Of a stretch of 8,524 nucleotides of DNA, positions 72 to 8,509 are shown piece by piece. The notes under the pieces were generated by a model that searched no databases, was not told the origin of the DNA, and worked only from the letters and a program-made list of their open reading frames with translations. Position numbers and translations under genes: made by a program. Every line of letters begins with the position of its first letter. The stretch's first letter is position 1. The stretch is from Lachnospiraceae bacterium (GTDB lineage Bacteria; Bacillota; Clostridia; Lachnospirales; Lachnospiraceae), in NCBI GenBank assembly GCA_003488445.1, contig DNLO01000069.1, positions 1 through 8,524 of the forward strand. Direction: 5' to 3'.

Positions 72-1232
72 TTATTTTGAGAACGGTATGAAGTCGATCT
101 TCGCGAAGTTCTCCGTAGCCCTCTGCTCCCACATATCATAGTCTTCCTCACTGGCAGGCTCCCACTCATCATCCGCTTCACCCGAGCCCGTGCCAGTATA
201 CCAGGGATTCTTCTCATCGGTATATCCGTCATACTTGATCCCGTACTGGAAGAAGAGATCCGACGTACCCGGCTCTATGATATATACTCTGATGCCGCTC
301 TCCATGGCACTGCTCGAAAATACATTGGCCACTCCGCCGTATTGCATGGCACGGTAGCTGTTCCTTGCACTGCCGCTCACCACCGATGCGGGCTTCCTCT
401 TCACCATGGTGTAGATATCGTATACCACACTGGGCTCACTGCCGTCCGAGATCACTCCCACCAGCAGCTCATCCACACCGTCGTTGGAGATATCCTTGTA
501 GGCATATCCCATTTCATCATGCTCAGCGAAAAGCTCCGGGCTCATCCCTTCCTTTTCCAGCTTATCGGCATCCCAGCCTTCCTTTATGGCGGTCTCGTAC
601 TTCTCGACGGTCTGTCCGTAGAGCTCCTCACCCTTCATTCCGGCTCCGTACTCGAAGGTCGCACCGTTCAGTCCCTTGATCCCTCTGATCATGCCATCCA
701 CCGCATCGGAGAGCCTGGCATAGGTTTCCGGCGTGTCCTCGTATTTCTCATAGTCCCACTGCACATCCGAAGGATAGCTCCTGCAGACCTCATATACCTC
801 ACCGTTGCTGTCTGTCAGCTCACCGACCTTGGTATACATTCCTCCCGCCATCACTTCCCCGTCCTTGTCGGCGATCACCGAGAATATGAACCCGCCGAAT
901 CCGTCTTCGTTGCACGCCTTGTCATATAGACTGATCTCATTGTCCTTGATATAGCCCAGGAACGTACCTTTGAGCTCATCCGGCACCGTCATCGAGAAAA
1001 GCTCAGTGGACAGCACCGTATCCTCCACATAGTCCGGCTCCTCCTCGGTGTACTCAGCTGCCGCCTCTGTCGCAGGCACCTCGGCAGTCTCCGCACTCTG
1101 TGCCTCTGCCGCCACCTCAGTCTGCGCCTCAGCCGCCTCTGTCGCAGCAGGCGCCTCAGCCCCCTGCTTCGCACCGCAGGCAGTGAGCAGGAGCATCATA
1201 CCCGCCATCATCAACGCCGGTTTCATTTTCAT
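72..1232 (-). CDS. Putative lipoprotein with Ala/Glu-rich linker, function unknown
   Basis: This is a 386-residue secreted lipoprotein of unknown function. Residues 1-18 form a type II signal peptide (basic start, Met/Leu-rich core) ending in the lipobox L-T-A-C, with Cys19 as the predicted lipidated residue, so the protein should be anchored on the outer face of the membrane. Residues 20-68 are a low-complexity Ala/Glu/Thr linker. Residues 72-190 resemble a domain I associate with Lachnospiraceae hypothetical proteins (beta-rich, 'FSMTVPDELKG' then 'GGFIFSVIADKDG'). Residues 247-256 (DISNDGVDEL) look like an Asp/Asn-rich calcium-loop type motif, as seen in FG-GAP or dockerin-like loops. The ATG at 1232 is chosen because GGAGG lies eight bases upstream; an in-frame ATG two codons later is less well placed. 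It sits 24 bases after a tRNA gene with no promoter of its own visible. No terminator is evident in the 71 bases after the stop. A role in the polysaccharide pathway is not supported. Confidence 0.9.
   Translation of the reverse strand: MKMKPALMMAGMMLLLTACGAKQGAEAPAATEAAEAQTEVAAEAQSAETAEVPATEAAAEYTEEEPDYVEDTVLSTELFSMTVPDELKGTFLGYIKDNEISLYDKACNEDGFGGFIFSVIADKDGEVMAGGMYTKVGELTDSNGEVYEVCRSYPSDVQWDYEKYEDTPETYARLSDAVDGMIRGIKGLNGATFEYGAGMKGEELYGQTVEKYETAIKEGWDADKLEKEGMSPELFAEHDEMGYAYKDISNDGVDELLVGVISDGSEPSVVYDIYTMVKRKPASVVSGSARNSYRAMQYGGVANVFSSSAMESGIRVYIIEPGTSDLFFQYGIKYDGYTDEKNPWYTGTGSGEADDEWEPASEEDYDMWEQRATENFAKIDFIPFSK
1060..1147. repeat. 16-bp direct repeat inside lipoprotein linker
   Basis: The 16-base sequence GCCGCCTCTGTCGCAG occurs exactly at 1060-1075 and again at 1132-1147, in the same reading frame of the lipoprotein (both copies encode an A-T-E-A-A-type stretch). 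The 72-base period is a multiple of three, so gain or loss of one unit would change the linker by 24 residues and keep the frame. This is a coding repeat in a low-complexity tether, not a mobile element. Confidence 0.6.
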
Positions 1233-1335: not shown

Positions 1336-3375
1336 CTATTGTACCATAGGTGCGGGATTCACCTTAAGGGTAAAGTTGCTGTAGTCGAGGCTGAAGTTCG
1401 GATTGAAGTAAGGATCCCCCGCCTCAAGATCGGCTGCCCACCTTTCCCGGAAAGCCTCTGATTCCCTGTCATATCTCGCAGCCCTCTCCGCATCCGCTCC
1501 GGACACATCCGATCCCCTCGAAGCGGACTCATAGTGAAAGAGCTCCGCGAAGGGCGTAAATACATTGACCCTGCCCATATGCCTGAGCTTCAGGCAAAGA
1601 TCCACATCATTGAGTGCCACGGCAAAGCCCGTATCCATTCCTTTGCAGGCATCGAAATCTGCTCTCGAGACCATAAGGCAGGCACCGGTCACCGCCGTGA
1701 AGTTCTGGGCATAGCAGAGCCTTCCCATGTATCCCAGATTCCCCTTTGCGAGCCTGTAGTGCACATGCCCCGCCGTCCTGTGGGCTCCGAGGCCGATCAC
1801 CACTCCCGCATGCTGTATCGTATAGTCCGGATAGTAGAGCTTGCATCCCACAGCACCCACATCCTCTCTCTGTGCGTACATGAGAAGCTCCTCTATCCAG
1901 TCTCTCGTTATCACCTCGGTATCATTGTTCAGAAGGAGCAGATATTCTCCCTTCGCAGCCTCCGCTCCTTTATTTATGAGCTCGGAGTAGTTAAAGCTCT
2001 CCTGCTCCACGCTTATCACGCTGATGTTCGGAGCCTTCCCAAGCTCCTCATAATAGGCTTTTATCCCCTCGGAAGTGCTCCCGTTCTCCACTACCACGAT
2101 CTCATAATTCTCATATGAGGATCTCAGCATGATGGAGTCTATACAGCGTCTCAGATCGCTCTCATGCTCTCTGTTGGGTATGATGACGGAGACAAGAGGC
2201 TTTGCCTTCAGCTCGTATCTTATCCTGAATATGGTCGCGAAGGCCTTGGTACTCTCTATCTCGAAGTTCTTCATCCCGTCTCTTTCCAGAGACGATGCCA
2301 CTGCCTTCTTGGCTGCATTTATCGCATAGGTCTTTGCATTGATGTCCGCTGCGGTGGAGCCCGCATGGCTCCTCCAGTAATAGAGGATCCGCGGCACATG
2401 CACGATACCGTCCTTCATCTTCGAGGCCTCACGCGTGAGCCTCAATATCAGGTCGTGATCCTGACTTCCGTCGTATTCGGACCGGAACTTCCCCGCCTTC
2501 TCCACCAGCTCTCTCTTAAAAGCAGAGAAATGACAGATATAATTGTTCGCCCTCAGATTGTCCGGGGCGTAGTCCGGCTTGAAGTGCAGCGTGATCATGT
2601 TGTTCACCGAGTCTCCCGTAAAGGTCGCCTCGTCGGAATACAGGAAACCGGCATCCTTCTCCTGCAGCACCTTCATGTATTCATACAGTGCAGAGGGATG
2701 GAGCAGATCATCATGATCCATCAGTGCATAATAATCACCCGTCGCAAGCTCGAAGCAGGCATTGGTATTCTCGGAGATCCCTCCGTTGCGCTCCAGCTTC
2801 TTATACCTGATACGCTCTCTCGCCGCACCGTCCTTCATATCCTTCGATGCGTACTCCGCCACGATCTCTCCCACATAGGCGTGCTCCTCATCGGACCCGT
2901 CGGCGAAGCAGAGCTCCCACCCCGCATAGGTCTGGGCCATCACACATTCTATGAGCTGCCTCAGGAAGTTCTCCGGCGTATTGTACAGAGGGATCAGTAT
3001 GGAGAATATATGCTCCTTTTCAAACCTTGCACTCTTCTCCTTCTCAAGCTCCTCACCCTTCGGGAAGCTCTCCGTACCGTGATACTTATAAGCCGAGCGC
3101 TCTATCTTCTTTGACTTCAGCTTCCTTATCACTTCCTTCACGGAGCCCAGTCGCTTCACTCTGATGCAGGCATTCTTAAAGTGCGACCACGCCAGCCTGA
3201 AGGGCATGATCATCCTGTATATCAGGCTCTGCTTCAGCGTGTTCCACTTCAGGGAGAGCTCGGCATGCTCGGCCTCGAGATCCGTCAGCTCTCTCGTGAG
3301 CTTCTCGTTCTTCTCTCTCTCCTTTTCGTAGAGCCCCTTGTAATATTCAGCTATATCTCTTTTGTCATCTGACAT
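1336..3375 (-). CDS. Two-domain GT2 family glycosyltransferase (RfbC-like)
   Basis: This 679-residue cytoplasmic or membrane-associated enzyme probably adds sugars to a growing surface polysaccharide. Residues 8-47 are a charged predicted coiled coil, followed by an amphipathic basic stretch (about 49-90, 'SLIYRMIMPFRLAWSHF') of the kind that often precedes GT2 domains in polysaccharide clusters. The first GT-A domain spans about 123-340 and has the nucleotide-binding start 'FSILIPLYNTPENF', the metal-binding DHDD at 220-223, 'FKPDYAPD' at 265-272 and 'SQDHDLILRL' at 304-313. The second GT-A domain spans about 394-620 and has 'VSVIIPN', 'ENGST' at 430-434, NNDTE at 483-487, 'VTGACLMVSR' at 562-571, NDVDLC at 589-594 and an 'HYESASR' tail motif. 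Both domains look complete, so the enzyme may be bifunctional. The ATG at 3375 is backed by AAAGGTGAT. The gene overlaps its upstream neighbour by 25 bases. Donor and acceptor sugars cannot be read from the sequence. Confidence 0.93.
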   Translation of the reverse strand: MSDDKRDIAEYYKGLYEKEREKNEKLTRELTDLEAEHAELSLKWNTLKQSLIYRMIMPFRLAWSHFKNACIRVKRLGSVKEVIRKLKSKKIERSAYKYHGTESFPKGEELEKEKSARFEKEHIFSILIPLYNTPENFLRQLIECVMAQTYAGWELCFADGSDEEHAYVGEIVAEYASKDMKDGAARERIRYKKLERNGGISENTNACFELATGDYYALMDHDDLLHPSALYEYMKVLQEKDAGFLYSDEATFTGDSVNNMITLHFKPDYAPDNLRANNYICHFSAFKRELVEKAGKFRSEYDGSQDHDLILRLTREASKMKDGIVHVPRILYYWRSHAGSTAADINAKTYAINAAKKAVASSLERDGMKNFEIESTKAFATIFRIRYELKAKPLVSVIIPNREHESDLRRCIDSIMLRSSYENYEIVVVENGSTSEGIKAYYEELGKAPNISVISVEQESFNYSELINKGAEAAKGEYLLLLNNDTEVITRDWIEELLMYAQREDVGAVGCKLYYPDYTIQHAGVVIGLGAHRTAGHVHYRLAKGNLGYMGRLCYAQNFTAVTGACLMVSRADFDACKGMDTGFAVALNDVDLCLKLRHMGRVNVFTPFAELFHYESASRGSDVSGADAERAARYDRESEAFRERWAADLEAGDPYFNPNFSLDYSNFTLKVNPAPMVQ
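1338..1348 (-). promoter_or_regulatory. Extended -10 promoter for tRNA-Ala, overlapping the GT stop codon
   Basis: The minus strand reads TATGGTACAAT, an exact fit to the Gram-positive extended -10 pattern TRTGnTAnAAT with hexamer TACAAT at 1343-1338. The last T of the hexamer is also the first base of the TAG stop codon of the upstream gene. The tRNA 5' end is nine bases further on, so transcription would start at or within about two bases of the mature 5' G. The -35 region is weak (TTAAGG at 18-base spacing), which is acceptable for an extended -10 promoter. This is a sequence match only; start-site mapping would settle it. Confidence 0.6.
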
Positions 3376-5141
3376 TTCTCATCACCTTTTATCAGTACAT
3401 GCCTTCCCCGAAGCACCGGATAAGCCGTGACCTCTCCCCAGGCGTTCAGCTCGTCCATTGCCTTTGCGGGTATCCTTGCGATGAAGCCGGACTTCGCGGC
3501 ATGCTTTTCTTTCGGGAAGCTCCTTGCCACATCCCTGCGCTCCATCCTCTGCGCCGTGACAGTGTATCTCGCTCCCTCCGTCTGCAGCATCACATATGGC
3601 TCTGCCTGTCTTCCGCCCTCTTTAAAGATCCATCCCCTGATCTCATAGAAGTCTTCATTGCCGTACGCATCCTGGGTGCAGTATTCAAAGCTGTCCAGAG
3701 AGGCGTGTATCTTTTTGCCGTCCTTCACCTTATCCTTCAGGAGAGTGACATCCGACATCCCGGATGTCTCCCATTCCTCGGGCAGGTTGATGTCAAAATC
3801 CAGACCGAACCTCGTGATGTTCCCGCTCATGAACGGATCGCCACCCTCCGCAAGCTCCGGATGTCTGGTAGTGAAGTATCTCTTCTCCGCCTTCAGCCGC
3901 TCATAGGCCTCCCTGTGATCCCTGTCATCGGGTCTGGTGGCGCTCTCGCTGTGGATCAGATGGTGCGAGTTCATGCACACATTGTACAGTCCCCTGTCGT
4001 AGAGCCTGATACACAGGTCTACGTCATTATATGCCACCGGAAGAGATTCATCAAAGCCGCCCACCGCCTCGTAGTTCTCTCTCGATACGGCAAGGCAGGC
4101 TCCGGTCACCGCTATCGTGTTGATATCATGGTCACTGTAGCCGTGATAATAAGATCCGTCCCTGTATCCCTGCAGCTTGTGGGACGGTCCCGAATGCAGC
4201 AAGGTGACTCCGCAGTGCTGTATCCTCTCTTCACCGGGATAGAGGAGCTTCAGACCTACCGCTCCTACTCCCTCTTCCGTTGCCTTGAGAGCGAGTCTTT
4301 CGGTCACACCCTTCTCTTTCGCGGGTATCTCTATATCATCGTTCATGAAGATATACACATCTCCCGAGGCCTTTGACACTCCGCAGTTGTTGAGTCTCGG
4401 ATAGTTGAACTCTGACGGCTCATAGTGATAGACGATCCCGTACTCTCTCACCGTCTCCTCGTAGAGACTCCGGTTCTCATCGGTGCTTCCGTTGTCTATC
4501 AGGATGATCTCGGTATCGTCCGCCAGCAGCGAAGCCGTGAGGCTCTTTACACACCTTGCAAGCATTTCCGGATGATCCTTCGAGAGGATGATCACGGATA
4601 TCTTCCTCTCCAGCTTGTCGATGAAGAATTCCTCTCCCCGGTCCTTCGACTCCTCCTGCTCCGTACTTCCCTCGCGCTTTCGATTCCCGGCCTTTTCCTG
4701 ACCTTTTATTCCGTTCCTTTTTCCCGCGGCGTTCTTCTTCCCGGGCTTCTCATCACCGTTCCTGTGATAGAGCACCTTGTCGATATGGCAGACCCTGTCC
4801 CTTGCAAAGCGTGACAGATCTCCTGCCTCCACTCCCTTCCTCAGAGCCACCATACCGTCGATATATCCCGTACTCCTCTGAGTCTCCGGAGAATATCCGG
4901 GCTTGAAGAAAGGCTCCTCACGAAGCCCCTTCCTTATCACATCCTCATCGCAGTATATGAGATCGTAGTCACATCCGTCAGCTGCCCGTGCGAATTCCTC
5001 CATGGCATCCGGATCCACCACATGGTCGTCACTGTCATATACTATATCGTAGCCGGCAGTGAAGCGGTCCAGGGCATGCCTCGACGCGCCTCTCCCTCTC
5101 CAGCCTTCATTCTGCTCTATCCAGCAAAGATACTTTGTCAT
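3351..5141 (-). CDS. GT2 glycosyltransferase with half-missing first GT-A domain
   Basis: This 596-residue protein probably transfers a sugar in the same polysaccharide pathway. Residues 1-127 resemble only the second half of a GT-A domain of the RfbC type: 'NEGW..GAS', DSDD at 36-39, YCDED at 63-67, 'FKPGYSPE' at 79-86 and 'HIDKVLYHR' at 119-127. The nucleotide-binding first half (about 60-70 residues) is absent. Residues 129-178 are a Lys/Glu-rich, low-complexity linker. A complete GT-A domain follows at 181-400, with 'ISVIILSKDHPEM', DNGSTDE at 216-222, MNDDIE at 266-271, VTGACL at 345-350, NDVDLC at 372-377 and HSESATR at 397-403. Residues about 475-587 form a beta-rich module ('IRGWIFKEGG', 'SGFIARIPAK'), perhaps glycan-binding. 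The start at 5141 is the only one that keeps the similarity, because an in-frame TGA lies nine codons upstream at 5166-5168. The preceding site (AAGAAGG) is modest. It overlaps the upstream gene by 35 bases and the downstream gene by 25. Confidence 0.88.
   Translation of the reverse strand: MTKYLCWIEQNEGWRGRGASRHALDRFTAGYDIVYDSDDHVVDPDAMEEFARAADGCDYDLIYCDEDVIRKGLREEPFFKPGYSPETQRSTGYIDGMVALRKGVEAGDLSRFARDRVCHIDKVLYHRNGDEKPGKKNAAGKRNGIKGQEKAGNRKREGSTEQEESKDRGEEFFIDKLERKISVIILSKDHPEMLARCVKSLTASLLADDTEIILIDNGSTDENRSLYEETVREYGIVYHYEPSEFNYPRLNNCGVSKASGDVYIFMNDDIEIPAKEKGVTERLALKATEEGVGAVGLKLLYPGEERIQHCGVTLLHSGPSHKLQGYRDGSYYHGYSDHDINTIAVTGACLAVSRENYEAVGGFDESLPVAYNDVDLCIRLYDRGLYNVCMNSHHLIHSESATRPDDRDHREAYERLKAEKRYFTTRHPELAEGGDPFMSGNITRFGLDFDINLPEEWETSGMSDVTLLKDKVKDGKKIHASLDSFEYCTQDAYGNEDFYEIRGWIFKEGGRQAEPYVMLQTEGARYTVTAQRMERRDVARSFPKEKHAAKSGFIARIPAKAMDELNAWGEVTAYPVLRGRHVLIKGDEKCQMTKEI
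3378..3389 (-). promoter_or_regulatory. Ribosome binding site of the 679-residue GT gene
   Basis: The minus strand reads AAAGGTGATGAG followed by AA and the ATG at 3375. This is a strong anti-16S match with nine bases between AAAGG and the start codon. It lies wholly inside the 3' end of the upstream glycosyltransferase gene (coding for its last 'KGDEK' residues), so ribosomes finishing that gene would uncover or pass the site. Confidence 0.75.
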
Positions 5142-7215
5142 ACGCCTTCTTTTCCGTCGGTTTCTTCAGCAGTCCTTTGGGAGCGGTCTCATACCTGGTG
5201 AACCTGCCGCCTATGTCAGCGATCATCTCCTTATCCATCGTACCTATCACGTACTCCAGATGAAACTCCCTGCACCCTGCCGGAAGGTCGAAGATCAGCT
5301 GCGGATCCTCCGTATCGAAGAAGACCGTCTTGTCGCATACATGACCGTTGGTCATCGCTTCCTTCACCGTAGCATCCGTAAGCCTCACCATGCACGAGGT
5401 CTCTGCGGGATCCACCCTCAGCTGCTTCACTCCCTCAGGCAGAGGCACGTCGAAGCACACCCTCATGTCATCCGATACCCTGCCGTCATAGTAGGTCATC
5501 TCCTGCTCCGTATATCCCTTTCCGGTGTCATAGTAGAATTTCGCATGTCCCGGCCTCAGCAGCTCACCGTACCCGTGCAGTGCCTGTGCCAGCGTCACAT
5601 ATCCCCTTCCGAATATGCTGTACATCGACCTGAGAGATACATGGCTCCCCGCGATCTTCAGCTGCAGCTCATCCTCCTTCTTCTCGAACTCCGCCTTCCT
5701 TGCCGTGTCCGTCTTCGCTGCGGCATACAGCTCATCCTCGGGTATCACCTCTCCGTTGTCGTCCCTGAAGTATCTCAGAGCACGGTATATGATGAACTCG
5801 GGATCCGCTCCCTCCTCCATCCATTCATAATCAGTGATGTTCCATGCACCGTCGGCGGTGATCATGATATTGGAGAAGATCAGATCCAGATCCGCCGGCC
5901 TCTTGGCCCGGACGAAGGCCGCGAACTGTCCTATCACCTTGAGTGCGGCATCCTTCCTGCCCTCCCGCATATATCCCGTCAATATGTCATCCAGAGTCTT
6001 TCCCTCCAGATACTCGAACTGTACCCCTACGAAGTCCCCGTTCCTGTCGTTGACGAGTCTCGCCCTGTTCACCTTCACCGACGAGTTCTTCAGCTTCTCT
6101 GAAAGCTTCAGATATGAATCATACATTCCCAGAAGATGTGACTTTGCAGCCGGAGTCTTCGGATACTTCATCACGTATTTCTTGTGATATCCGTCCTCCT
6201 GTATGTCCGTCCTGATCCTGTACCTGTCATCCCTCTCGTCGGAATGCCTCGAATACAGCGTCCTCTTCACATCGAAGCTCTCTATCCTGTCTTCCTTTGA
6301 AAGAAGCACCAAAAAGGAATTGGAAACTGTAGGGAACGCCCCTTCCCGTATCGCTTCGTCGAATGCCCTCGCCTCGTCGAATGCCACGAATCTCGGTGCA
6401 TCGAAATTCCTGATGTTGTCAGTCATCTCACCGGGATGGGGCAGTCTCTCATCCGAGAAGACCACCGACGGCAGCTTGTAGTCCGGATAGGGATAGTAGA
6501 ATTCCGTACGTAGCCCGGCCTTTTTCGCCAGAGCCTCTATGCCTTTTTTTGAGAAGGTCCTCACCTTCTCCGTATCTCTGTATCCTTCTATGCCGTCATA
6601 GAAGACACCCGTATGATCCTCCGTACAGCCTGCGATATACTTCATGCCGTACTTGTTCTCTATGCCGGCGACGATCTCACCGCCCTGAGCCAGATGCCCC
6701 GTAAGCCTCGACAGCATGTCCAGATAAGGCTCGGAAGAATGTATATATTCACCCGAGTACTCCAGCACTCCGATCAGGAAGATATAGTCGTACTCATCCT
6801 TAAGGTCCGGCTCTATATCCTCGAAGTTGCCCACTATGATATCTATGTTGTCCCTGTTCCTGTTCCTGTAGGCATTGATCAGACTTCTCCTGTAAGAGAG
6901 CTCTATGCAGGTCACATGCTCTGCCTTGTCCGAGAGCACTCCCGTGACCGCCCCGCATCCCGCACCTATCTCCAGCACCTTCTGGGTCTTCTGCACCGGC
7001 AGGAAGTCAGCTATGTTCCCTCTCATGTCCGAGAGATGATAGAGCACGTTCCAGGTGTGGCGCCTCGCTATGATGTCGTTGAAGCTCTCCTCCGGCTCAT
7101 TCTGCACGATGGTGAGCAGCTCATCCTCCACAGCTCCCTCGCTGTATCCGTCCGACCCGCTGTAATAGCTCAGGTCCAGATTCACTTTTCCTATCGTTTC
7201 AGATCTCTTTTCCAT
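5107..7215 (-). CDS. SAM methyltransferase-kinase fusion, WbdD-like glycan-capping candidate
   Basis: This 702-residue protein joins three parts. Residues 1-310 hold a class I SAM-dependent methyltransferase: motif I VLEIGAGCG at 80-88, the acidic post-I strand 'VTCIELS' at 101-107, and 'YIFLIGVLEYS' at 144-154. Residues about 335-480 resemble a protein-kinase or aminoglycoside-phosphotransferase fold: Lys350 in 'KYVMK', hinge-like 'FEYLEGKTLDDIL' at 400-412, Asp444 and Asn449 in 'DLIFSN', and Asp462 in 'TDYEW'. The Asp-Asn-Asp spacing (5, then 13) is exactly that of classical kinases, so the site looks active. Residues about 555-660 are beta-rich ('LRVDPAETSCMVRLTD', 'LIFDLPAGCREFHLEYV'). 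The nearest known plan is WbdD, which methylates and phosphorylates the non-reducing end of E. coli O8/O9a chains and so stops growth. The ABC transporter gene beside it fits that role. The ATG at 7215 overlaps the upstream gene by 17 bases and has a poor ribosome site; GTG at 7185 is an alternative start. Capping is inferred. Confidence 0.88.
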   Translation of the reverse strand: MEKRSETIGKVNLDLSYYSGSDGYSEGAVEDELLTIVQNEPEESFNDIIARRHTWNVLYHLSDMRGNIADFLPVQKTQKVLEIGAGCGAVTGVLSDKAEHVTCIELSYRRSLINAYRNRNRDNIDIIVGNFEDIEPDLKDEYDYIFLIGVLEYSGEYIHSSEPYLDMLSRLTGHLAQGGEIVAGIENKYGMKYIAGCTEDHTGVFYDGIEGYRDTEKVRTFSKKGIEALAKKAGLRTEFYYPYPDYKLPSVVFSDERLPHPGEMTDNIRNFDAPRFVAFDEARAFDEAIREGAFPTVSNSFLVLLSKEDRIESFDVKRTLYSRHSDERDDRYRIRTDIQEDGYHKKYVMKYPKTPAAKSHLLGMYDSYLKLSEKLKNSSVKVNRARLVNDRNGDFVGVQFEYLEGKTLDDILTGYMREGRKDAALKVIGQFAAFVRAKRPADLDLIFSNIMITADGAWNITDYEWMEEGADPEFIIYRALRYFRDDNGEVIPEDELYAAAKTDTARKAEFEKKEDELQLKIAGSHVSLRSMYSIFGRGYVTLAQALHGYGELLRPGHAKFYYDTGKGYTEQEMTYYDGRVSDDMRVCFDVPLPEGVKQLRVDPAETSCMVRLTDATVKEAMTNGHVCDKTVFFDTEDPQLIFDLPAGCREFHLEYVIGTMDKEMIADIGGRFTRYETAPKGLLKKPTEKKAYDKVSLLDRAE

Positions 7216-8509
7216 TTTTTACCAGCTGCACCTCAGAGTCCATATCGTAATATCCCACAGTGTCCTTTGAAGAAATGACCTGCACGTTAAATATATCATA
7301 TAATCTGTGGTATACGGTGAAATTCCCTTCCCTGTAGCCCACGAGTCCCAGCGACACAAGATAGTCCCCTCCCTGCAGCATCATGTCCTGGGTAAAGGTA
7401 GCCACTATCTCATCCCCGTCATGACACTCACCTGTGGAGAGCTTTTCAAACATGGTATTGGTTCCCGTTATCTCCACACCCATGCGGTTCTTCAGCGATA
7501 CCGCTATGATGGGTTCGGAGATATCCGCGTGATATTTCGTCTTCACCTTCACCGAGAAGCTGTCACCCTTTATCACGGTATTTGTCATGTTGCCCGCGTT
7601 GTCTATCAGACAGAAATCCTCTATCTCCGCCAGCCCGCTGCCATATGTATCGTTGGAGGGGTTCAGAGTCATATGCGACTTCCACAGTCCCTCCTTTACA
7701 TTCCTGTTGAAGGATCCCCTGAGCCTGCCGTCCTCGCCCACCTGCTCGGAGCCCGACATCGCGGAGCTGGTCTGGTTCACCAGCACCTTCTTGTACATGT
7801 CGATGATCTCCTTGGGCCTTCCCTCAGCCATCTTCTTACCGTGGTCCAGCAGTATCACCCTGTCACAGTATTTGCTTATGGATGAGAGATCATGCGACAC
7901 GAAGAGGATCGTCTTGCCCTGGGCCTTGAACTCCTCGAACTTGTGGTAGCACTTGTTCTGGAAGAAGACATCTCCCACGGACAGCGCCTCATCCACCACC
8001 AGTATCTCCGGATCTATATTGATCGCCAGAGCGAAAGCCAGACGCACGAACATACCCGACGAATAGGTCTTCACCTGCTGGTTCACGAACTCACCTATAT
8101 CCGCGAAGTCCAGTATATCCTGGAGCCTCTCATCTATCTCCTCTTCCGTGAAGCCGTTCATCGTCCCGTTCAGATACACATTCTCTATGCCCGTGAACTC
8201 CATGTTGAACCCGGCACCCAGCTCCAGCAGCGCGGATATCCTGCCGTTTATCTCCACATTCCCCGCTGTGGGCGAGAGCACTCCGGTGATGATCTTGAGT
8301 ATGGTGGACTTGCCGGACCCGTTGGTCCCGATGATACCCACGGTCTCACCCTTCTTCACCTGTATGGACACATCCTTAAGGGCATAGTGCTCCTTGTAGA
8401 GCTGCTTTCCCCTGCCCAGTCCCAGCGAGTCCTTCATCCTGTCCCGCTGCCTGTTATACAGTTTATACATCTTGTCGAGATGCTCGACGTTTATTATTAC
8501 ATTGTCCAT
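7199..8509 (-). CDS. wzt: Polysaccharide ABC transporter ATPase with Wzt C-terminal domain
   Basis: This 436-residue protein is the nucleotide-binding subunit of an ABC exporter for surface polysaccharide, working on the cytoplasmic face with a Wzm-type permease that is not in the window. The ATPase domain (about 1-240) has Walker A GTNGSGKST at 61-69, the Wzt/TagH-typical 'LLELGAGF' at 94-101 where many ABC proteins have a Q-loop, signature YSSGM at 149-153, Walker B 'ILVVDEALSVGD' at 169-180 and the switch His206. Residues about 285-425 match the Wzt C-terminal glycan-binding type, opening with 'YGSGLAEI' at 289-296 and followed by beta-strand-rich sequence. TagH-type teichoic acid exporters lack this domain; in O9a-type systems it reads the capped chain end. 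The ATG at 8509 gives the usual family N-terminus 'NVEHLDKMYKLYN'. No good ribosome site is visible in the 15 bases left before the window edge, and the frame stays open to the edge, so a slightly longer start cannot be excluded. Confidence 0.93.
   Translation of the reverse strand: MDNVIINVEHLDKMYKLYNRQRDRMKDSLGLGRGKQLYKEHYALKDVSIQVKKGETVGIIGTNGSGKSTILKIITGVLSPTAGNVEINGRISALLELGAGFNMEFTGIENVYLNGTMNGFTEEEIDERLQDILDFADIGEFVNQQVKTYSSGMFVRLAFALAINIDPEILVVDEALSVGDVFFQNKCYHKFEEFKAQGKTILFVSHDLSSISKYCDRVILLDHGKKMAEGRPKEIIDMYKKVLVNQTSSAMSGSEQVGEDGRLRGSFNRNVKEGLWKSHMTLNPSNDTYGSGLAEIEDFCLIDNAGNMTNTVIKGDSFSVKVKTKYHADISEPIIAVSLKNRMGVEITGTNTMFEKLSTGECHDGDEIVATFTQDMMLQGGDYLVSLGLVGYREGNFTVYHRLYDIFNVQVISSKDTVGYYDMDSEVQLVKNGKEI

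What the first reader, a model, noticed from the sequence alone, without database searches (positions are those of the whole stretch)
5107..8509. Wzt with glycan-recognition domain next to a methyltransferase-kinase: O-antigen-style chain capping in a likely Bacillota
Seen: a Wzt-type ATPase with a C-terminal substrate domain overlaps by 17 bases a protein with methyltransferase and intact kinase signatures. Known: in E. coli O8/O9a, WbdD caps the non-reducing end with methyl or methyl-phosphate groups, and the Wzt C-terminal domain recognises that cap for export. Inferred: the same cap-and-export logic controls chain length of a surface polymer here. Classical Gram-positive ABC export of teichoic acids (TagGH) lacks a comparable recognition domain, so a capped-chain checkpoint in this setting would be notable.
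Basis: partly seen in the sequence, partly recalled or inferred. Interest (0 to 1): 0.72.

Follow-up and report, generated by a model that had tools for sequence, protein, structure and literature searches.

The report
Split sugar-chain capping and export module
In a Lachnospiraceae-like bacterium, the gene for a sugar-chain export pump with a sugar-recognition domain overlaps the gene for a methyltransferase-kinase protein that is predicted to cap the finished end of a likely rhamnose-rich surface chain, so that the pump would export only completed chains; the closest characterised relative appears to be in Klebsiella, and here the parts sit on separate proteins.

Summary
Observation confirmed: a Wzt ATPase with a strong Wzt_C domain (135.7 bits) overlaps by 17 nt a 702-aa protein with methyltransferase, kinase and beta-rich domains and conserved catalytic residues. 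The pairing is not chance: among 200 genomes of the same family, all 100 with the strong Wzt_C subtype have a methyltransferase-kinase hit (partial in a few), 95 have neither, 5 only the latter; 91 of 100 have both domains within 6 kb downstream, against 0 of 43 weaker Wzt_C hits. Cap-and-export is well supported by analogy, but the nearest characterised relative appears not to be WbdD: it is the O7 ORF6 terminator of Klebsiella pneumoniae, which puts methyl-phosphate on a terminal rhamnose. A Pseudomonas plasmid protein has six of six published O7 SAM-site residues at the same numbers and is co-linear with the window's methyltransferase-kinase plus its second glycosyltransferase. Relatives of the window carry these modules on separate genes, as kinase-coil-GT fusions, or in one 1270-aa chain. 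Gram-positive cap-and-export was already proposed for Geobacillus S-layer rhamnan (methyl only). No polymer chemistry is known; cap, substrate and ruler are inferred. New variant of a known kind.

The parts
7199..8509 (-). Wzt-type ABC exporter ATPase, 436 aa
   Evidence: ORF; ABC_tran 83.2 bits; best PDB sequence match 8dku (A. aeolicus Wzt by PMC9445017), E 3.6e-77 over residues 11-245
7241..7651 (-). Wzt_C glycan-binding domain (residues 287-423)
   Evidence: PF14524 135.7 bits; profile A3 hits 2r5o E 3.1e-14, 7k2t/8dku E 7.6e-9, 5hno E 1.9e-4
7199..7215 (-). 17-nt overlap of the two reading frames, also in L002, L003, L004 and G079
6292..7215 (-). class I SAM methyltransferase domain (residues 1-308; E82, G84, G86, G88)
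5548..6285 (-). kinase domain (residues 311-556; K350, D444, N449, D462, E464 invariant in A1)
   Evidence: no Pfam hit
5242..5547 (-). C-terminal beta-rich domain (about residues 557-658), no Pfam family; possible counterpart of the Ig-like CBM of O7 ORF6
   Evidence: DSSP of the AF2 model; my CT profile, built from A1, finds it in 48 of the 79 named loci and weakly (E 0.016) in the Pseudomonas protein
5107..7215 (-). whole methyltransferase-kinase protein, 702 aa
3351..5141 (-). GT2 glycosyltransferase, 596 aa, overlapping the previous gene by 35 nt
1336..3375 (-). two-module GT2 glycosyltransferase, 679 aa; its residues 118-674 match the C-terminal GT2-GT2 half of the Pseudomonas protein (39% over 560 columns)
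3235..3318 (-). short N-terminal heptad stretch (residues 20-47) of the 679-aa protein, possible coiled coil
   Evidence: home-made heptad score 0.60 against shuffle mean 0.37, reached by 7 of 300 shuffles

Best explanation
The window encodes a Wzt-type export ATPase with a C-terminal glycan-binding domain and, overlapping it by 17 bases, a methyltransferase-kinase protein that is predicted to put a methyl-phosphate cap on the finished end of a likely rhamnose-rich surface polysaccharide, which the Wzt domain would then recognise for export. Shown here: the domains, their conserved catalytic residues, the overlapping genes, and the co-occurrence across genera. Inferred: the two neighbouring GT2 enzymes extend a lipid-linked chain in the cytoplasm from dTDP-rhamnose; the kinase phosphorylates the non-reducing end and the methyltransferase methylates that phosphate, as measured for Klebsiella O7 ORF6; elongation stops; Wzt_C binds the cap and Wzm/Wzt exports the chain. 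I read it as a split version of the O7-type chain (MT-kinase-CBM-coil-GT2-GT2 in one polypeptide): here MT-kinase-beta domain, GT2, and (short coil)-GT2-GT2 are three overlapping genes. How length is set without a covalent coiled-coil ruler is open.
For: Co-occurrence: 200 genomes of the family (own genome included), 199 genera; strong Wzt_C (E<1e-37) in 100, all 100 with a listed methyltransferase-kinase hit, 5 with the latter only, 95 with neither; both domains within 6 kb downstream in 91 of 100, some part in 96; 0 of 43 weaker Wzt_C hits have either domain downstream. Named loci: Wzt N and C parts directly before MT in 62 of 79. Of 12 genomes tested from the 16-locus clade where MT-K has no Wzt next door, 10 carry the strong Wzt_C elsewhere. 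Gram-negative relatives: Citrobacter plasmid rmlBACD-wzm-wzt-MTK (29.7% over 489 columns) and Pseudomonas plasmid wzm-wzt-MT-K-...-GT2-GT2, both Wzt with Wzt_C; the Pseudomonas protein has Y28, Y66, G91, G93, E112, Y158 as published for O7 ORF6 and its candidate catalytic Asp at 443 against 441 (PMC11231755 section 11 part 1). Kinase-coil-GT fusions in L069, L073, L079, L080 and a 1270-aa MT-K-GT chain in G185 tie the kinase to glycosyltransferases. RmlA, RmlB, RmlC matches in 41, 39 and 41 of 51 loci with over 5 kb upstream. Closest solved recognition domain by profile is 2r5o, which I recall as the O9a Wzt domain, whose cap is methyl-phosphate.
Against: No chemistry of any such polymer; no enzyme assay. 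The O7 protein itself could not be fetched, so the link rests on published residue numbers and a plasmid relative; in the Citrobacter protein the same motifs are shifted by one and 0 of the 7 numbers match. No coiled coil is evident in the window protein, whereas the paper gives all its O7 orthologues one. Nine of 100 strong Wzt_C hits lack one or both domains downstream: G072, G064, G170, G034, G139, G081, G116, G153, G066 (in G139 MT-K lies upstream, in G034 and G116 on another contig). G506 has MT-K and no Wzt_C, G500 only a weak, broken one; G188, G076, G186, G090 have MT-K hits without Wzt_C; kinase hits without Wzt_C also in G348 (partial) and G398. RmlD matched in only 2 of 51 loci. The 1e-37 split was chosen after seeing the list and the Fisher p of 2e-51 ignores relatedness. 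WbdD is not among the 50 VIA rows shown for either model.
Confidence: 0.7

Rival explanations
1. The methyltransferase-kinase decorates internal residues or the linker of the polymer rather than its end, and Wzt_C recognises that decoration or the backbone.
For: No end-group data; the beta-rich domain could hold the chain along its length (inference); MT-K also occurs without a neighbouring Wzt in a 16-locus clade.
Against: Tight pairing with the strong Wzt_C subtype and co-linearity with a characterised terminator; in that clade Wzt_C is mostly present elsewhere (10 of 12 tested).
Confidence: 0.13
2. A methyl-only cap as in Geobacillus S-layer rhamnan, the kinase fold serving as scaffold or regulator.
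For: Gram-positive precedent for a 2-O-methyl rhamnose cap with a Wzt predicted to bind it (PMC2943079 passages); rml genes nearby.
Against: K, D, N, D of the kinase invariant in 57 relatives and kept in 64 of 65 locus proteins; the kinase is kept where it is encoded apart from the methyltransferase.
Confidence: 0.1
3. A direct WbdD counterpart in which the same protein is also the coiled-coil ruler.
For: WbdD entries are the only two-domain hits in the 50 Foldseek rows listed.
Against: No WbdD by sequence; global superposition poor, rmsd 16 A over 521 columns; no heptad stretch in residues 557-702, best score reached by 205 of 300 shuffles.
Confidence: 0.05

Closest known systems
Klebsiella pneumoniae O7 ORF6 methyltransferase-kinase terminator with Wzm/Wzt (PMC11231755, passages and section 11 part 1)
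   Same: Order MT, kinase, then a further (Ig-like / beta-rich) domain; spacing of SAM-site residues; catalytic Asp at 441 / 444; rml genes, wzm, wzt; two GT2 modules
   Different: Here three separate overlapping genes, no coiled coil evident in the terminator, an extra GT2, a Lachnospiraceae-type host; the paper lists O7 ORF6 orthologues from alpha-, gammaproteobacteria and cyanobacteria
E. coli O9a WbdD / Wzt (PMC3482155, passages)
   Same: MT plus kinase in that order; Wzt with C-terminal recognition domain
   Different: No sequence match, different relative domain placement, WbdD residues 460-708 with predicted coiled coil not seen here; mannan, not rhamnose
Geobacillus stearothermophilus S-layer glycan system WsaE, Wzm/Wzt (PMC2943079, passages)
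   Same: Bacillota, dTDP-rhamnose, ABC export, end-capping methyltransferase next to wzt, overlapping genes
   Different: Methyl-only cap, no kinase described, methyltransferase fused to two GT domains, product goes to an S-layer protein
Aquifex aeolicus WzmWzt (PMC9445017, passages)
   Same: NBD plus CBD; best PDB match of the window NBD
   Different: Cap is 3-O-methyl rhamnose or mannose; its CBD is a weaker profile match than 2r5o

Membership tests
Wzt with C-terminal recognition domain (PF14524) | ABC ATPase followed by Wzt_C above the curated cut-off | tested here: met
   135.7 bits against 30.4, plus ABC_tran
Wzt with C-terminal recognition domain (PF14524) | binds the capped chain end | not testable with these tools
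   needs a binding assay
O7 ORF6-type methyltransferase-kinase terminator | N-terminal class I methyltransferase with the SAM-site residues | tested here: met
   Y59, G84, G86, E105 have the same spacing as O7 Y66, G91, G93, E112
O7 ORF6-type methyltransferase-kinase terminator | following kinase domain with catalytic Asp | tested here: met
   D444 invariant in 57 relatives; kinase fold
O7 ORF6-type methyltransferase-kinase terminator | Ig-like CBM after the kinase | tested here: inconclusive
   beta-rich domain in the model; weak profile link E 0.016 to the Pseudomonas protein; not folded alone
O7 ORF6-type methyltransferase-kinase terminator | coiled coil in the same polypeptide | tested here: not met
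   home-made heptad score of residues 557-702 reached by 205 of 300 shuffles; a coil-like stretch is seen instead in kinase-GT fusions of relatives
O7 ORF6-type methyltransferase-kinase terminator | phosphorylates then methylates terminal rhamnose | not testable with these tools
   needs an enzyme assay
O7 ORF6-type methyltransferase-kinase terminator | direct sequence relationship to ORF6 of O7 | not tested
WbdD | sequence relationship to WbdD | tested here: not met
   no WbdD chain at E up to 1 among 55 PDB matches
WbdD | C-terminal coiled coil | tested here: not met
WbdD | methyltransferase plus kinase fold in that order | tested here: met
   4azt, 4ax8, 4azw two-domain matches
Geobacillus WsaE-type methyl-only cap | methyltransferase without kinase | tested here: not met
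   kinase present and conserved

The most novel reading that the evidence does not exclude
About half of Lachnospiraceae genera, and apparently some wall-less Acholeplasmatales, build a rhamnose-based surface glycan whose ends are methyl-phosphate capped and proof-read by Wzt_C, with terminator and polymerase on separate, repeatedly re-fused proteins, so chain length is set by a non-covalent terminator-polymerase contact instead of a built-in coiled-coil ruler.
Probability: 0.35. Interest if true: 0.75.

Novelty: new variant of a known kind. Interest (0 to 1): 0.58.

Why it matters
Cap-dependent export is best known from Gram-negative O-antigens. Finding its likely full gene set, in natural split and fused forms, in half of 200 sampled genomes of what appears to be Lachnospiraceae makes the chain-length question testable in Gram-positive commensals and offers natural experiments on whether the terminator must be tethered to the polymerase. 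It also gives a gene marker for capped, probably rhamnose-type surface polymers in gut bacteria.

Tried and rejected
NCBIfam gave no family above its cut-off in the rows shown for the five window proteins (for Wzt 25 of 189 rows shown). The kinase profile against PDB sequences gave only weak protein-kinase hits, best E 0.0015, and no WbdD among the 60 of 65 shown. WbdD is absent from the 50 VIA rows shown for both models; this is not counted against relationship.

Considered and rejected: 'methyltransferase-only variants' for L069, L070, L073, L074 (the kinase sits in the next gene); 'no Wzt' for L030, L040, L050 (an artefact of my greedy ORF caller; tblastn finds it); 'split' for L052 and L076 in the tree (contig ends); the number 30 'split' is not a count of separate genes, as G185 in that list is one 1270-aa frame.

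Weak points of the counts: A1 matches 196 of 200 genomes at E<=1e-3, presumably through generic methyltransferases, so I used only the 150 listed places (weakest E 1.4e-14; more were not listed) and dropped G016 (C-terminal domain only) from the genome table. Some of the 100 hits are partial, e.g. G170 only profile positions 5-81 near a contig end. The loci are selected by similarity to the window. One search was given 12 of the 16 loci of the Wzt-less clade. The heptad score is home-made; the coil-like stretches of L069, L073, L079, L080 were reached by 17, 0, 11 and 12 of 300 shuffles of already coil-rich stretches, and those of the two plasmid proteins had no shuffle control. The tree has long branches (L101 above all) and I draw no rooting from it.
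Full report
What is there. The window is G000:C228:1-8524 of a 61.8% complete assembly. Four genes overlap on the minus strand: Wzt (8509-7199), a 702-aa methyltransferase-kinase (7215-5107), a 596-aa GT2 (5141-3351) and a 679-aa double GT2 (3375-1336). The nearest named locus, 85% identical, is from a MAG labelled Lachnospiraceae (L002); the family name of the 200 sampled genomes is inferred from this.

Wzt. ABC_tran and Wzt_C are both far above their cut-offs. A profile of 28 C-terminal domains finds 6 PDB sequences at E<=1: 2r5o first (3.1e-14), then the A. aeolicus entries (7.6e-9 and weaker) and 5hno (1.9e-4). That 2r5o is the E. coli O9a Wzt domain is recalled, not from a call.

Not chance. 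Searches covered the same 200 genomes (own genome included). Of 143 Wzt_C places in 121 genomes, 100 (one per genome) have E<1e-37; 91 of these have both MT and kinase matches within 6 kb downstream, 96 some part, 61 in one alignment. Of the other 43 places none has MT or kinase downstream (one has only the C-terminal domain). The nine strong hits without both are G072, G064, G170, G034, G139, G081, G116, G153 and G066: partial matches, contig ends, MT-K upstream (G139) or on another contig (G034, G116, G066). By genome: 100 with both, 0 with strong Wzt_C only, 5 with MT-K only, 95 with neither; of 21 genomes with only weaker Wzt_C one has MT-K, G023, whose Wzt_C (3.8e-35) lies about 0.9 kb downstream of it. 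Across the phylum the kinase is rare: 7 of 299 genomes, while Wzt_C is in 34 of 299. The five best Wzt_C genomes, the window's own among them, are all among the seven; G348 (partial hit) and G398 have the kinase without a Wzt_C match; none of the other 29 Wzt_C genomes has it. Across the class it is in 12 of 245.

Neighbourhood. In 62 of 79 named loci Wzt lies directly before the methyltransferase; the 17 without are 16 loci that form one clade and L072. In 10 of 12 genomes tested from that clade the strong Wzt_C lies elsewhere in the genome, in one it is weak and broken, in one absent. Of 51 loci with over 5 kb upstream, RmlA matches in 41, RmlB in 39, RmlC in 41, RmlD in only 2 (one query), Wzm in 47 and a GH25 protein in 45, with my ORF caller's known misses. 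Further genes in single loci include PGM, GT2 and a polyprenyl sugar-phosphate transferase (PF02397) in L039 and an LCP ligase (PF03816) in L081. This is why I call the polymer likely rhamnose-rich and, in walled hosts, possibly wall-linked; both are inferences.

Architectures. Same modules, different fusions: MT-K-beta (window; 48 of 79 named loci); MT, then K-coil-GT in one frame (L069, L073, L079, L080; two GT2 modules shown by Pfam for L069 and L079); MT, then K (L070; L074 runs off its contig); one 1270-aa MT-K-GT chain in G185. Separate MT genes fall in more than one place of the methyltransferase tree (at least 4 label changes forced by starred branches, but two of the 11 'split' rows are contig ends and long branches are flagged).

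The closest known system. PMC11231755 (passages; section 11 part 1) describes K. pneumoniae O7 ORF6: methyltransferase, a previously unannotated kinase, an Ig-like CBM, a coiled coil and two GT2 modules; in vitro it phosphorylates, and partly methylates the phosphate of, the terminal rhamnose at position 3, and D441A abolished activity. A tblastn of the window protein against 72,556 plasmid records gave two. The Pseudomonas asturiensis one has an ABC permease gene, a Wzt with Wzt_C, and a 1457-aa protein with MT (35% identity to the window over 294 columns), kinase (profile E 8.1e-8), a weak beta-domain match (E 0.016) and GT2-GT2 (39% over 560 columns to the window's 679-aa protein). All six O7 SAM-site residues named in the paper occur in it at the same numbers, and its candidate catalytic Asp is at 443. 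The Citrobacter braakii one has rmlBACD, permease, Wzt with Wzt_C, MT-K (649 aa, kinase profile E 3.6e-6) and GTs in the same order as the Lachnospiraceae loci, but its GTs belong to other Pfam families and its motifs are shifted by one against the O7 numbers. So I read the window as a split form of the O7-type system. Because the coiled coil that the paper gives all its orthologues is not evident in the window protein, I file it as a variant, not a member.

What was known. WbdD: PMC3482155 (passages). A. aeolicus cap recognition: PMC9445017 (passages). Gram-positive cap-and-export with a methyl cap: PMC2943079 (passages). I saw no report of a methyltransferase-kinase terminator in Bacillota in the listings of searches; the library is partial.

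How it likely works, with status. Domains, residues, overlapping genes, co-occurrence: shown. Kinase then methyltransferase acting on a terminal rhamnose: inferred from O7. Wzt_C reading the cap: inferred from the O9a and Aquifex systems and from the pairing found here. Length control: open, since the terminator is not covalently joined to a coil or polymerase in the window.

Noticed in passing
window 72-1232 (-): 386-aa ORF starting like a Cys lipoprotein, no Pfam family at E<=0.1; a 262-aa ORF follows the GTs in G079 instead.
   Followed up: partly
L073, L074, L078: MAG contigs labelled Anaeroplasma/Acholeplasmatales (GC 24-28%) carry a Wzm-like gene, Wzt with Wzt_C-like domain and MT (kinase next in L073 and L074; L078 ends). 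The genomes of L074 and L078 show no transpeptidase and no LCP match, so the exported glycan may not be wall-bound there; that of L073 has 4 transpeptidase matches and no LCP match. Completeness unknown; binning needs checking.
   Followed up: partly
L054-L068, L071: A 16-locus clade has MT-kinase without the C-terminal domain and without Wzt in the fetched flanks, mostly after a GT2 gene; in 10 of 12 tested genomes the strong Wzt_C sits elsewhere.
   Followed up: partly
43 weaker Wzt_C places: Weaker-scoring Wzt_C in the same family with no MT or kinase match within 6 kb downstream: presumably other caps.
   Followed up: no
L003:4498-5739 and relatives: A GH25 (lysozyme-type) gene lies between rmlA and rmlC in L003 and matches are present in 45 of 51 loci with enough upstream DNA.
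   Followed up: no
L098: A rml-wzm-wzt-MT-kinase O-antigen-type cluster on a conjugative Citrobacter braakii plasmid.
   Followed up: no
L029, L035: Loci labelled Gastranaerophilales and Muribaculum nest inside Lachnospiraceae in the MT tree: likely misbinned contigs.
   Followed up: no
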